Shown in pieces: positions 5,852-21,989 of a stretch of DNA of 37,366 nt. Location: contig PMML01000113.1 of assembly GCA_003162695.1 (NCBI GenBank), forward strand, positions 1 through 37,366. The letters run 5' to 3'. A program made the translations under genes and the position numbers. A model generated the notes under the pieces. It had not been told where the DNA came from. It did no database searches and saw only the letters and a list, made by a program, of their open reading frames with translations. This DNA is from Ignavibacteriota bacterium. GTDB lineage: Bacteria > Bacteroidota > Ignavibacteria > UBA10030. The number at the start of each line of letters is the position of its first letter. The first letter of the stretch is position 1.

Positions 5852-8347
5852 CTATTTCAATAATAATAATTTTTTCACTGCCGTGTAGGATACTGTCTGT
5901 CCCGAAGAGACGGCATTTGCCGCAAGGCGATAGAAATAAACTCCGCTGGCGTATTTGCCGGCATTGAAAGTGATTGAATGGCTTCCGGCCGTCTGTGTTT
6001 CATCAATAAGAGTCGTAAGCTCACGGCCGAGTATGTCGTAGACCTTGAGCGTTACATGGCTCGCTGCCGGTATCTGGAAGCTGATGATGGTACTTGGATT
6101 GAAAGGATTCGGATAATTTTGGTTCAGTGCAAATGTCGCCGGCAGCGAAGCTCCGGAGGATTTAGCGATTCCTGTTGCCGTGTACGAAGCTGTCAGTCCC
6201 GCAATAGAAGAATGATAATTACCTTCGATAGAAGAGAAGTCTCCGCCTACGTACACGTTTGATCCGGAAGGTGTGACAGCATAGACATAGCTGTCCGGGT
6301 TCGGATTCCAGGGCGTGAGATTACCCGTAGTTACATCAAGAGCGCCTAAATAATTGCATGCAGCATTCCCGATGGCGGTAAAATTTCCTGCGGCATACAC
6401 CGTCGATCCGGATACGGCGAGTGCATAGACATATGTATCGGCCGCCGGATTCCAGTTTGTGGCTTTGCCCGTGCTTGCGTCGACAGCGGCAATAAAATTT
6501 CTTGTGACCGACGTCGTCGTGTCGCCGAAGTGCGTGAAATATCCTCCCGCATACAAAATTCCGTTTCCAACCGCCAGTGCGCGGACAGAACCGTTAGCGC
6601 TCGTATCCCATGGAAGTGCTGTGCCTGTGGGAATGTCGAGTGCGGCAATATATCTGCGAATGGCGGAACTGCCCATCAATGTAAAATTTCCGCCGGCATA
6701 CAGAGTCGATCCGGATGTAGCAAGAGCATATACGTAGTTATTGGGAGACGGATTCCAGCTTGTTGCCATTCCTGTTGCCGTGTCCAATTCTGCAATATAT
6801 TTTCTCCCCGCGCCGCCGATGCTGTCAAAGTACCCACCGGCGTACACCTTAGAATTGTAGGTTAGTAGCGCTTGAACGGCGCCGGTTGCTCTCGGATTCC
6901 ATGGCGTGGCTCTTCCCGATGATGTATCCAGTGCTGCGATAAAGCTGCGGGCTGAATTTCCGATGTTTGTAAAATATCCGCCTGTGTATATTGTCGATCC
7001 GCTGATGGATATTTTATAGACGGGGCCGTCTGCATTCGGGTTCCATGATGCTGCTTTTCCGGTGGGAAGATAGAGTGCGGCAATATTATTTCGTACCGAA
7101 TCGCCTGCGCTGGAGAGAGAACCGCCTGCATAGATGGTTGAACCCTGGGCAGCAAGCGAGAAAACGTAATTGTTGCTGCGTGGATTCCAGTTCTTTACAA
7201 AACCGGCCAGCGTATCGATTGCGGCAAGTGCATTCCTTGCTGCACCGCCGATATTTGTGAAGTACCCCGCAGCATAGATTGTCGAACCGGAAAGTATGAG
7301 CGCAGCGACACTATTGTCGGCATTCGGATTCCATGGTTTGAGATATTCCGACGCCGTATCGAGAGCCGACGTATCAAGAGCGGCAAGATAATTACGCGTT
7401 ATCGGAAATCCCAGTGTATCGCTTCCTATCGATGTAAAGCTCCCGCCGATATAGAGCGTCGGTCCGGAGAAGAGCAATGTGTTTACGCTGCCATTCGGCT
7501 CGGGATCCCATGATGTAGGTATTGCTGTGCCGGTATCAAGAGCGGCAAGATAATTTCTTGTATAGGACGAATCGAGTGTGGAAAACGAACCTCCGGCATA
7601 AAGTTTTGATCCGGAGACTGCAAGTGAATAGACGTAACCGCTTGCTCTTGGATTCCATGCTTTGACGGCACCTGTTGCGCTGTCCAGAGCTGCGAGGTAT
7701 GTTCGAGCCGAGTCGCCTGTCATCGTTACAATCGAATCGCCGATCTGTGTAAAGAATCCTCCAATATAGACTGCCGTTCTGGAAACCGCAATTGCATCGA
7801 CTTGATCGTTTGCATCCGGATTCCATTGTGTTGCTTGACCGGTCGACGTGTTCAGCGCCGCAATATTGTTCCGTGCGGAACCGCCGATGTTTGCAAAACG
7901 TCCTCCGACATACAATGTTGAACCGGAAAGGGCAAGCGTGCGAATCGTTGCGTACGTGTCAGGATTTGGATTCCAGGCGGCATCGACTGTGTTATCGTTC
8001 TTGATATGCGCGATGCTGTTTCGTGATATCGTACCTACGGTCGTAAAGTTTCCTCCAATATACCATCCGCCGGATCCGTCCGGTATAACGCAATACACAA
8101 TGCCGTTGACTTTTGGAAAACCGGGAACGATAGTTCCTGAATCAATGTCCAGAACGACGCCGTGCCCCGTGTACGGCCCGACTGCGGAAAAAATACCTCC
8201 GATATAGAGAGTCGATCCATCACTGCTCGGAGTTACGGTGTAAACCGTGCCATTGGTGATCCACATATTGTCGTTGACGACGGTTTGCGCCTTTAATGGA
8301 TTTATAAAAAGCATCGCGAGTACAGCGTAAAAAAAAGAATACTTCAT
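5852..8347 (-). CDS. Secreted repeat protein (delta-60/beta-propeller-like repeats) with T9SS type A C-terminal sorting domain
   Basis: Start at ATG 8347 chosen over 8365 because GGAG lies upstream and MKYSFFYAVLAMLFINPLKAQ is a signal peptide. About 14 repeats of the form (Y)VYALAVSGSTLYAGGxFTxIG...RNxIAALDTxTGxATxWNPxxN, then NQNYPNPFNPSTIISFQIP...VTLKVYDILGRELTTLIDE...GVYFYRL. Confidence 0.88.
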   Translation of the reverse strand: MKYSFFYAVLAMLFINPLKAQTVVNDNMWITNGTVYTVTPSSDGSTLYIGGIFSAVGPYTGHGVVLDIDSGTIVPGFPKVNGIVYCVIPDGSGGWYIGGNFTTVGTISRNSIAHIKNDNTVDAAWNPNPDTYATIRTLALSGSTLYVGGRFANIGGSARNNIAALNTSTGQATQWNPDANDQVDAIAVSRTAVYIGGFFTQIGDSIVTMTGDSARTYLAALDSATGAVKAWNPRASGYVYSLAVSGSKLYAGGSFSTLDSSYTRNYLAALDTGTAIPTSWDPEPNGSVNTLLFSGPTLYIGGSFTSIGSDTLGFPITRNYLAALDTSALDTASEYLKPWNPNADNSVAALILSGSTIYAAGYFTNIGGAARNALAAIDTLAGFVKNWNPRSNNYVFSLAAQGSTIYAGGSLSSAGDSVRNNIAALYLPTGKAASWNPNADGPVYKISISGSTIYTGGYFTNIGNSARSFIAALDTSSGRATPWNPRATGAVQALLTYNSKVYAGGYFDSIGGAGRKYIAELDTATGMATSWNPSPNNYVYALATSGSTLYAGGNFTLMGSSAIRRYIAALDIPTGTALPWDTSANGSVRALAVGNGILYAGGYFTHFGDTTTSVTRNFIAAVDASTGKATNWNPAADTYVYALAVSGSTVYAAGNFTAIGNAACNYLGALDVTTGNLTPWNPNPDSYVYAVTPSGSNVYVGGDFSSIEGNYHSSIAGLTASYTATGIAKSSGASLPATFALNQNYPNPFNPSTIISFQIPAASHVTLKVYDILGRELTTLIDETQTAGSHSITFNAGKYASGVYFYRLAANAVSSGQTVSYTAVKKLLLLK

Positions 8348-8799
8348 TTCTGTTCTCCACAGCATTAAAATTCAATGCATAGATCTAAAAAACGGATTAT
8401 ATTCATTCTGTTCTTGTATGTCCATTGCAGCCGGCCGATATTGAAGCTCCGATAATTCTCCCATATTCCATGAATATTCCTGCAATCAATTCGATTTCTC
8501 ATGGAGATATTTCCGGATAGTCTCTCTTGCTTTTCCTGCATATAGAAGGACATTATGCGGGACGGAATCGAATGCACAGACCGTCAGCTCTTTATGGACA
8601 ATGAACAGCGATGATTCCACTTGTTCAAAACTCAATAATATAAAGAATCTTAAGTAAATATCGCGAAAAGTGACCCCAATCGCAATGAAAATTAAAAATG
8701 AGAATTATCCATTTTCCTGCTTTCATAGACGTAGGGAAAGACGTTCACGTTCCAGCCAAGAAGTGCAAGGAGCATTTTATGTGTTTCTTTTATGTGTTT

Positions 8800-20371: not shown

Positions 20372-20400
20372 TTGACAATGAAATGATAATTTACTATAGT
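20372..20400 (+). promoter_or_regulatory. trp operon promoter
   Basis: TTGACA (20372-20377), 17-nt spacer, TATAGT (20395-20400), immediately upstream of the Trp leader ORF. Confidence 0.8.
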
Positions 20401-20406
20401 AAAGTT

Positions 20407-20487
20407 ATGATTATACATGAATTATACAATCGGTTCGAGAACAAGGCTTGGTGGTGGTGGCGTCGGTCTGCGCTTCCGCTCGTATAA
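20407..20487 (+). CDS. trpL: trp operon leader peptide, MIIHELYNRFENKAWWWWRRSALPLV*
   Basis: 26-codon ORF with four consecutive TGG codons (20449-20460), 6 nt after the -10 element and followed by an intrinsic terminator, upstream of the trp operon. Below the ORF-track size cutoff. Confidence 0.88.
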   Translation: MIIHELYNRFENKAWWWWRRSALPLV

Positions 20488-20512
20488 TTCGTATCTAAAG
20501 AATTTAAAAGAA

Positions 20513-20547
20513 GGTGGAAACGTAGACGTAACGGTTCCGCCTTTTTT
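20513..20547 (+). terminator. trp attenuator terminator hairpin
   Basis: GGTGGAAACG TAGACGTAA CGGTTCCGCC followed by TTTTTT; one G-U pair and one mismatch in the stem; 26 nt after the leader stop and 140 nt before the trpB2 start. Confidence 0.87.
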
Positions 20548-20687
20548 GTTGTACCTGCCCGCAAAAAATCGTGAGAACCGCACTTACGAACCATTTTCAT
20601 CAAAAATTTTTATAATCAACGATGCACCCCCGGACAACGGAGCGCTGTCCCGGAAGTACAAAAATCATAAACTCAATGGAGGAATCT

Positions 20688-21989
20688 ATGCAAAGAAAAA
20701 TCATGCTCGAAGAAAAAGACATTCCGTCGCATTATTATAACATCCTGGCGGATCTTCCCAATCCGCTGGAGCCGGATCTTCATCCGGGAACCAAACAACC
20801 CGTCGGTCCGCAGGATCTTGCGCCGCTTTTTCCTATGGAATTGATCAAGCAGGAAGTCGGAACAGAGCGGTTCGTTCCCATACCGGACTCGGTACGCGAT
20901 GCGTATTCGCTCTATCGCCCGACGCCGTTGTATCGCGCTTACGAATTGGAGCGCGCATTGGATACTCCGGCGCATATCTATTATAAATATGAGGGAGTCA
21001 GTCCGGCCGGCAGCCATAAGCTGAATACTGCGCTGGCACAAGTATATTATAATAAAGAGCAGGGAGTTAAGCGTCTTGCAACGGAGACCGGCGCAGGCCA
21101 GTGGGGAAGTTCTCTGGCATTCGCATGCCAGCGGTTCGGATTGCAATGCAAGGTGTATATGGTCAAAGTAAGCTATGAGCAGAAACCGTATCGGCGTTCC
21201 ATGATCCAATTATGGGGAGGTGAAGTCGTAGCAAGTCCGAGTAATGAGACCAATGCCGGACGCGCAGTGCTGGCGAAAAATCCGAATTCCAGAGGCAGCC
21301 TCGGTATCGCCATCAGCGAAGCGGTTGAAGATGCGGCGGGCAGAGAAGATACGAAGTACGCGCTCGGCAGCGTGCTCAATCACGTTCTGCTCCATCAGAC
21401 AATTATCGGTCAGGAAGCAAAGAAACAAATGGAAATAGCCGGCGAGTATCCGGATCTTGTGATTGCATGCGTAGGCGGCGGTTCGAATTTCGGCGGAATC
21501 GCTCTGCCGTTTATTAAGGACAAAATTGAAGGGAAAAAACTGCGTGCTATTGCCGTCGAACCGGCTTCATGTCCGACGCTGACCAAAGGAGAATACCGCT
21601 ACGACTTCGGCGATGTTGCAGGAATGACGCCGCTCCTGCCGATGTATACGCTTGGTTCGGATTTTATGCCTCCATCGATCCATGCAGGCGGATTGCGTTA
21701 TCATGGAATGTCACCGATTATCAGCCGATTGTATCTGGACAAGCTTATTGAGGCGCAGGCTTATGAACAAACCAACGTGTTCGAGGCTGCCGTCCAATTT
21801 GCGCGCACGGAAGGAATTATTCCTGCGCCGGAATCGGCCCATGCGATACTTTCCGCTGTCGTAGAAGCAAAGAAAGCAAAAGCGGAAGGAACGAAGAAGG
21901 TCATATTGTTCAACTTGAGCGGTCATGGGCATTTTGATATGAGCGCCTACGATGCATACTTCTCCGGAAAACTTGGAAACGGTCAATAA
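20688..21989 (+). CDS. trpB2: TrpB-like pyridoxal-phosphate enzyme (TrpB2-type tryptophan synthase beta)
   Basis: 433 aa from ATG 20688 (SD GGAGGA at 20678-20683); [47 protein letters not shown], and the extended N-terminus typical of TrpB2 ([27 protein letters not shown]). Confidence 0.92.

What the first reader, a model, noticed from the sequence alone, without database searches (positions are those of the whole stretch)
20372..20547. trp leader-peptide transcription attenuator with WWWW leader ORF upstream of trpB2
A 26-codon ORF (MIIHELYNRFENKAWWWWRRSALPLV*) with four consecutive TGG codons lies between a consensus promoter and an intrinsic terminator, ahead of an eight-gene trp operon. 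The competing structures can be read directly. The terminator is GGUGGAAACG/CGGUUCCGCC-U6. UUCCGCU (20474-20480, within the leader 3' end) can pair with GGUGGAA (20513-20519) as an antiterminator. The GGUGG tract made by the Trp codons can pair with the same UUCCGCU region. Region 1 thus mimics the terminator 5' arm and region 2 mimics its 3' arm. Ribosome-mediated trp attenuation is established mainly in Proteobacteria; this instance in an apparently FCB-group genome is absent from the supplied ORF track and likely missed by annotation.
Basis: partly seen in the sequence, partly recalled or inferred. Interest (0 to 1): 0.88.

Follow-up and report, generated by a model that had tools for sequence, protein, structure and literature searches.

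The report
Leaderless tryptophan attenuator upstream of trpB2
An uncultured Ignavibacteria-like bacterium appears to switch its tryptophan-making operon on and off with a classic stalled-ribosome attenuator, a known kind of switch that is here conserved across a whole class where I found no report of it, and in many relatives an extra RNA element appears to add a second lock.

Summary
A 26-residue leader peptide with four consecutive Trp codons (20407-20487) lies between a near-consensus promoter and an intrinsic terminator, ahead of trpB2-E-G-D-C-F-B-A. Comparison makes the attenuator reading strong. Related genomes carry Trp-run leaders and terminators at the same place. With a ribosome stalled at the first two Trp codons the model gives terminator 0.02-0.03 and antiterminator 0.72; with the ribosome at the stop codon, terminator 0.95. 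A homologous RNA with Tyr/Phe codons precedes DAHP synthase in three relatives.

In the window this segment exists but its pairing is weak and no ribosome-site blocking is predicted. Nothing was measured. New member of a known kind.

The parts
20372..20400 (+). sigma-70-type promoter: TTGACA (20372-20377), 17 nt, TATAGT (20395-20400)
   Evidence: 11 of 12 consensus positions; best promoter at the equivalent place in relatives nearly always has a 17-nt spacer
20407..20487 (+). leader peptide ORF, 26 codons plus stop, MIIHELYNRFENKAWWWWRRSALPLV; start 7 nt after the -10 box, no Shine-Dalgarno, so probably a leaderless start
   Evidence: sequence; Trp-run leader at the same place in relatives; start-codon position and lack of SD conserved
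20449..20460 (+). four tandem TGG (Trp) codons, the proposed sensor
   Evidence: Trp run conserved in relatives, replaced by Tyr/Phe codons in homologous leaders before DAHP synthase
20453..20480 (+). 1:2 hairpin (20453-20463 with 20470-20480), pairs part of the Trp-codon tract with region 2
   Evidence: minimum-free-energy fold
20466..20480 (+). region 2, 5' arm of the antiterminator GUCUGCGCUUCCGCU
   Evidence: 14 pairs with 20513-20527, -21.7 kcal/mol, about 0.0007 of shuffles as good; 9 of 14 pairs with changes on both sides in 17 loci
20513..20527 (+). region 3, 3' arm of the antiterminator and 5' arm of the terminator
20532..20547 (+). region 4, terminator 3' arm CGGUUCCGCC (20532-20541) and U6 (20542-20547)
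   Evidence: stem folds at -18.2 kcal/mol; 93% of cells paired in 17 loci
20570..20589 (+). region 5 (CGTGAGAACCGCACTTACGA), counterpart of the conserved post-terminator element of relatives; can pair with the terminator's 3' half (20527-20537)
   Evidence: weak in the window: -15.8 kcal/mol, 0.10 of shuffles as good over the whole 5' UTR, 0.008 in its first 60 nt; strong in relatives
20678..20682 (+). Shine-Dalgarno GGAGG of trpB2
   Evidence: sequence; not complementary to region 5 in the window
20688..21989 (+). trpB2 (TrpB-like PLP enzyme), first gene of the operon
   Evidence: NF009057, TIGR01415
22037..23533 (+). trpE
   Evidence: TIGR00564
23530..24099 (+). trpG
   Evidence: TIGR00566
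24087..25109 (+). trpD
   Evidence: TIGR01245
25106..25891 (+). trpC
   Evidence: NF001377
25888..26505 (+). trpF
   Evidence: NF002298
26654..27859 (+). trpB
   Evidence: TIGR00263
27862..28638 (+). trpA
   Evidence: TIGR00262; exact start codon not determined

Best explanation
This is a ribosome-mediated transcription attenuator of the trp operon. A transcript begins at or within a few bases of the leader AUG, and a ribosome loads directly on that end. If charged Trp-tRNA is short, the ribosome stalls in the Trp run (20449-20460). This disrupts the 1:2 hairpin and leaves region 2 (20466-20480) free to pair with region 3 (20513-20527) before region 4 is made; the terminator cannot form and all eight genes are transcribed. 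If Trp-tRNA is plentiful, the ribosome runs to the stop codon (20485), covers region 2, the 3:4 terminator forms and transcription ends in the U run at 20547. Shown here: the parts, their conservation, covariation of both competing helices, and the thermodynamic switch under simulated ribosome masks. Inferred: that transcription starts at the AUG, that the peptide is translated, and that termination responds to tryptophan.
For: Anatomy at base resolution. Conserved Trp-run leader and terminator before trpB2 in the family, order and class, plus named Ignavibacteriae, KSB1 and Neomarinimicrobiota contigs. Antiterminator: 82% of cells paired versus at most 47% in slid controls, 9 of 14 pairs changed on both sides, 0 of 500 shuffles reach the covariation score. 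Terminator: 93% paired versus at most 52% when slid. Masking: stalled at W15/W16, terminator 0.03/0.02 and antiterminator 0.72; at the stop codon, terminator 0.95. Codon identity follows the pathway: a homologous RNA with Tyr/Phe-rich peptides (RYYLYYYPW, RYYFYYF, RYYYYFYF) precedes DAHP synthase. Leaderless start: in 35 of 41 loci the -10 ends 4-12 nt before the leader start, none has an SD, while 39 of 41 trpB2 genes do.
Against: No transcript or expression data. In most relatives the equilibrium model still favours the terminator with the ribosome stalled, so there the switch must rely on the antiterminator forming first. In the window, the model loses the antiterminator when the ribosome stalls at the third or fourth Trp codon with a 10-nt downstream footprint. 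Many TrpB2-bearing relatives, such as genus g21 of family f5, have no Trp-run leader. Shuffle-type covariation controls do not remove the effect of relatedness.
Confidence: 0.93

Rival explanations
1. A two-sided switch: besides the classic attenuator, segment 5 after the terminator pairs with region 4 when 2:3 has formed, locking the terminator open, and in the terminated or leaky state segment 5 instead blocks the trpB2 ribosome-binding site or forms a second terminator. This is an extension of the main explanation, not an alternative to its core.
For: Pairing of the terminator's 3' half with the 5' UTR beats shuffles at p < 0.05 in 29 of 41 loci and matched partners beat swapped ones in the window-like group (p = 0.0002). 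Overlapping pairing with the SD region reaches p < 0.05 in all 10 loci of the Melioribacteraceae-like SD type; four loci lacking segment 5 also lack the UUCAC extension of the SD. Locking region 4 in the terminator raises the cost of opening SD and AUG by 2.8 kcal/mol on average in family f1 and 1.7 in the SD type, about 0 in the tandem-terminator type.
Against: In the window itself region 5 does not match the SD (p = 0.94), the opening cost does not change (-0.5), and the equilibrium fold does not form 4:5. Swap tests are not significant within the Melioribacteraceae-like groups (p = 0.27 and 0.52). SD pairing covariation in the window-like group is marginal (p = 0.07). Relatedness is not fully controlled.
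Confidence: 0.5
2. Expression is controlled by something other than the peptide: a TRAP-like protein, a T-box or a riboswitch, with the Trp run incidental.
For: Only that such systems control trp operons elsewhere (own knowledge).
Against: No T-box, riboswitch or other Rfam family at E <= 1 in the window region; the Trp run and its frame are conserved across divergent sequences, and the codons switch to Tyr/Phe before an aromatic-pathway gene.
Confidence: 0.03
3. The small ORF and hairpin are an accident: a stray terminator and a chance TGG repeat.
For: TGG repeats also occur inside Gly- or Val-rich repeats elsewhere in the genome.
Against: Position-specific conservation and two mutually exclusive covarying helices.
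Confidence: 0.01

Closest known systems
Classical trp attenuator with trpL leader peptide (Escherichia coli and other Proteobacteria)
   Same: tandem Trp codons, 1:2 / 2:3 / 3:4 pairing, intrinsic terminator before the trp operon
   Different: probable leaderless start; antiterminator includes the terminator loop; first gene is trpB2; no sequence relationship tested or claimed
Sinorhizobium meliloti trpL / rnTrpL (PMC7298713)
   Same: trp attenuator whose transcript starts with the AUG of the leader ORF
   Different: Alphaproteobacteria, 14-residue peptide, trpE(G) only; here the leaderless start is inferred from promoter spacing
trp attenuators of Corynebacterium and Streptomyces (PMC1262725)
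   Same: Trp-codon leader peptides and terminators outside Proteobacteria
   Different: Actinobacteria; two or three Trp codons; different sequences
Bacteroid-trp RNA (Rfam RF01692, PMC2864571)
   Same: cis-regulatory RNA listed for Bacteroidetes; by its name associated with trp genes (details not in the text I could read)
   Different: the window has no match to it up to E = 10
Bacillus subtilis vmlR leader (PMC9226507)
   Same: ribosome stalling on a leader ORF controls both a terminator and, in readthrough RNA, an SD-blocking hairpin, the logic proposed here for relatives with segment 5
   Different: responds to antibiotics, not to an amino acid; Firmicutes; leader ORF has an SD
Rfam RF04312 trpB motif (PMC11109978)
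   Same: two hairpins, the second a terminator, sometimes before trpB
   Different: only 29-32 bits against a cut-off of 59 in Melioribacteraceae-like relatives, through generic hairpins; no hit in the window

Membership tests
ribosome-mediated (leader-peptide) transcription attenuator of trp | short ORF with consecutive codons for the end-product amino acid, before the biosynthetic operon | tested here: met
   conserved
ribosome-mediated (leader-peptide) transcription attenuator of trp | intrinsic terminator between leader ORF and first gene | tested here: met
   -18.2 kcal/mol stem and U6; conserved
ribosome-mediated (leader-peptide) transcription attenuator of trp | mutually exclusive antiterminator using the terminator's 5' arm | tested here: met
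ribosome-mediated (leader-peptide) transcription attenuator of trp | geometry: ribosome at regulatory codons frees region 2, ribosome at stop codon covers it | tested here: met
   for the first two Trp codons; model only
ribosome-mediated (leader-peptide) transcription attenuator of trp | termination responds to charged Trp-tRNA | not testable with these tools
   needs expression data
leaderless leader mRNA | transcription start at the AUG | tested here: inconclusive
   promoter spacing and absence of SD fit in 35 of 41 loci; no start-site map
Rfam RF01692 Bacteroid-trp | covariance-model match | tested here: not met
   no match at E <= 10
T-box or other Rfam cis-regulatory family | covariance-model match | tested here: not met
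TRAP-regulated trp leader | about eleven (G/U)AG repeats | not tested
   not scanned; none apparent on reading

The most novel reading that the evidence does not exclude
In much of the class, the trp attenuator is a six-segment chain: the terminator sequence is pulled open from both sides, its 5' half by leader segment 2 and its 3' half by a downstream segment 5 that otherwise blocks the trpB2 ribosome-binding site or builds a second terminator. One stalled ribosome on a leaderless peptide would then set both transcription and translation of the operon. In the window's own genome the SD-blocking arm looks lost.
Probability: 0.5. Interest if true: 0.6.

Novelty: new member of a known kind. Interest (0 to 1): 0.45.

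Why it matters
I found no description of leader-peptide attenuation in Ignavibacteria in the held open-access papers, and Rfam does not detect it. The homologous Tyr/Phe version shows how one attenuator can be re-aimed at another pathway by swapping codons. The downstream segment gives a testable case of a single ribosome event controlling two steps of expression for an amino-acid operon.

Tried and rejected
Rfam hit RF04312 in relatives looked like membership but rests on generic hairpins and is far below cut-off. The one own-genome run of five His codons, which overlaps a TGG run on the other strand, lies in a Gly-rich repeat, not a leader. Model hit L148 is a Gly-rich false positive. No Tyr/Phe leader was found before the DAHP synthase genes of the window's own genome. 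SD blocking by region 5 was tested in the window and not supported. A claim that every relative switches at equilibrium was rejected. Vitreschak et al. 2004 is not in the library; from memory its abstract mentions candidate attenuators in Bacteroidetes/Chlorobi, unverified.

Full report
What was checked. The promoter matches 11 of 12 consensus positions. The leader ORF 20407-20487 encodes MIIHELYNRFENKAWWWWRRSALPLV. NCBIfam names the eight genes that follow as trpB2, E, G, D, C, F, B and A. Only three places in the 3.38-Mb genome have four or more tandem TGG on either strand.

Conservation. TrpB2 was used to find related loci in named genomes and in unnamed relatives. Short ORFs with Trp runs lie 150-440 nt before trpB2 in most members of the window's family that have the gene, and in other families of the order. 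The class search with a covariance model built from 17 leaders gave 56 of 394 genomes with a match, the weakest of them doubtful. Fetching the upstream regions of 60 more TrpB2 genes showed WWW or WWWW leaders throughout a second family group (f14, f27) and two-Trp leaders in a third (f24). That naming is inference.

Structure. On the 17-leader alignment the antiterminator is a 14-pair helix (window 20466-20480 with 20513-20527). It is formed in 82% of cells, against 37-47% when slid by 1-3 columns, and 9 pairs have changes on both sides; column pair 36/99 alone is C-G in 9, G-C in 7 and U-A in 1. The terminator helix that uses the same region 3 is formed in 93% of cells and also carries double changes. 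Thus region 3 covaries with two partners that exclude each other, which is the signature of a switch. For the window, a mask imitating a ribosome with W15 or W16 in the A site gives terminator probability 0.03 and 0.02 and antiterminator 0.72; a ribosome at the stop codon gives 0.95 for the terminator. In many relatives the equilibrium calculation keeps the terminator even when the ribosome is stalled, so a kinetic argument (antiterminator forms before region 4 exists) is needed there.

Codon identity. The same model found two leaders, and a protein search a third, with the same RNA architecture but peptides MSMFKRYYLYYYPWARDSALSLR, MSMFKRYYFYYFTRARDCALSLR and MNMNRPGRYYYYFYFTRARDRALSPG, before DAHP synthase; in one the next gene resembles prephenate dehydrogenase. 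The regulatory codons follow the pathway, which favours a translating-ribosome sensor over a ligand-binding RNA.

Leaderless start. In 41 leaders the best promoter has a 17-nt spacer almost always and ends 4-12 nt before the leader start codon in 35; three of the six exceptions come from choosing an internal ATG. None of the 41 has an SD-like sequence before the leader, while 39 of 41 trpB2 genes do; the same scan before trpB2 puts a promoter in that range in 6 of 41. In the window the ATG begins at the seventh base after the -10 box. A leaderless trpL is known in Sinorhizobium meliloti (PMC7298713).

A fifth segment. After the terminator most relatives carry a segment (GUGGGAACCUCC-like in the window's family, GCCGUGAAC-like in f14) complementary to the terminator's 3' half. 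The pairing beats shuffles at p < 0.05 in 29 of 41 loci, and in the window-like group true partners pair better than swapped ones (p = 0.0002). In many loci the same segment is complementary to the SD and start of trpB2 (all 10 loci of the f14 SD type at p < 0.05), four relatives lack both sides, and in ten loci it is instead the 5' arm of a second terminator. Releasing region 4 lowers the modelled cost of opening the trpB2 start in these SD types. The same logic is described for B. subtilis vmlR (PMC9226507). In the window the counterpart (20570-20589) exists, but the evidence is weak: 0.10 of shuffles as good over the whole 5' UTR, 0.008 over its first 60 nt, no SD complementarity, and no 4:5 helix in the equilibrium fold. 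I therefore keep it as a rival extension, not part of the main claim.

Verdict. The window holds a real, conserved, classical leader-peptide attenuator of the trp operon, probably translated from a leaderless end. It is a new member of a known kind in a class where I found no report of it. What remains unproven is everything that needs an experiment: start site, translation, and response to tryptophan.

Noticed in passing
L227 (own genome, C111:121725-121761, minus strand): A second probably leaderless leader peptide, MILKLVYFDPSRLEGITLRCCCTAAC, with a cysteine run lies before serine O-acetyltransferase and a cysteine-synthase-like gene. Several relatives have Cys-run leaders at the same place (for example FCCCCC, ACCCC; L234, L236-L238, L240, L242).
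   Followed up: partly
L143 1400-1700 (reverse strand), L144 1400-1700, L251: Homologous attenuator with Tyr/Phe-rich leader peptides before DAHP synthase: same RNA architecture, different regulatory codons.
   Followed up: partly
L062, L069, L080 (two of them Neomarinimicrobiota), about 70-130 nt before trpB2: Short ORFs with WWTW or WWIW abut the upstream gene without a visible terminator; a hairpin near the SD in L080 suggests translational control by a Trp leader.
   Followed up: no
L160-L169, after the first terminator: Tandem intrinsic terminators whose 5' arms share the sequence GCCGU before trpB2.
   Followed up: partly
L145-L159 versus L081-L092, promoter of the leader: The second family group has TAnnTTTG-like -10 elements, as in Bacteroidetes, while the window's family has TATAAT-like ones; leader start spacing is similar.
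   Followed up: no
window 5852-8365, minus strand: 837-residue protein of repeated IYAGGYFTNIGG-type units with a C-terminal NYPNPFNPSTII domain that resembles a secretion sorting signal.
   Followed up: no
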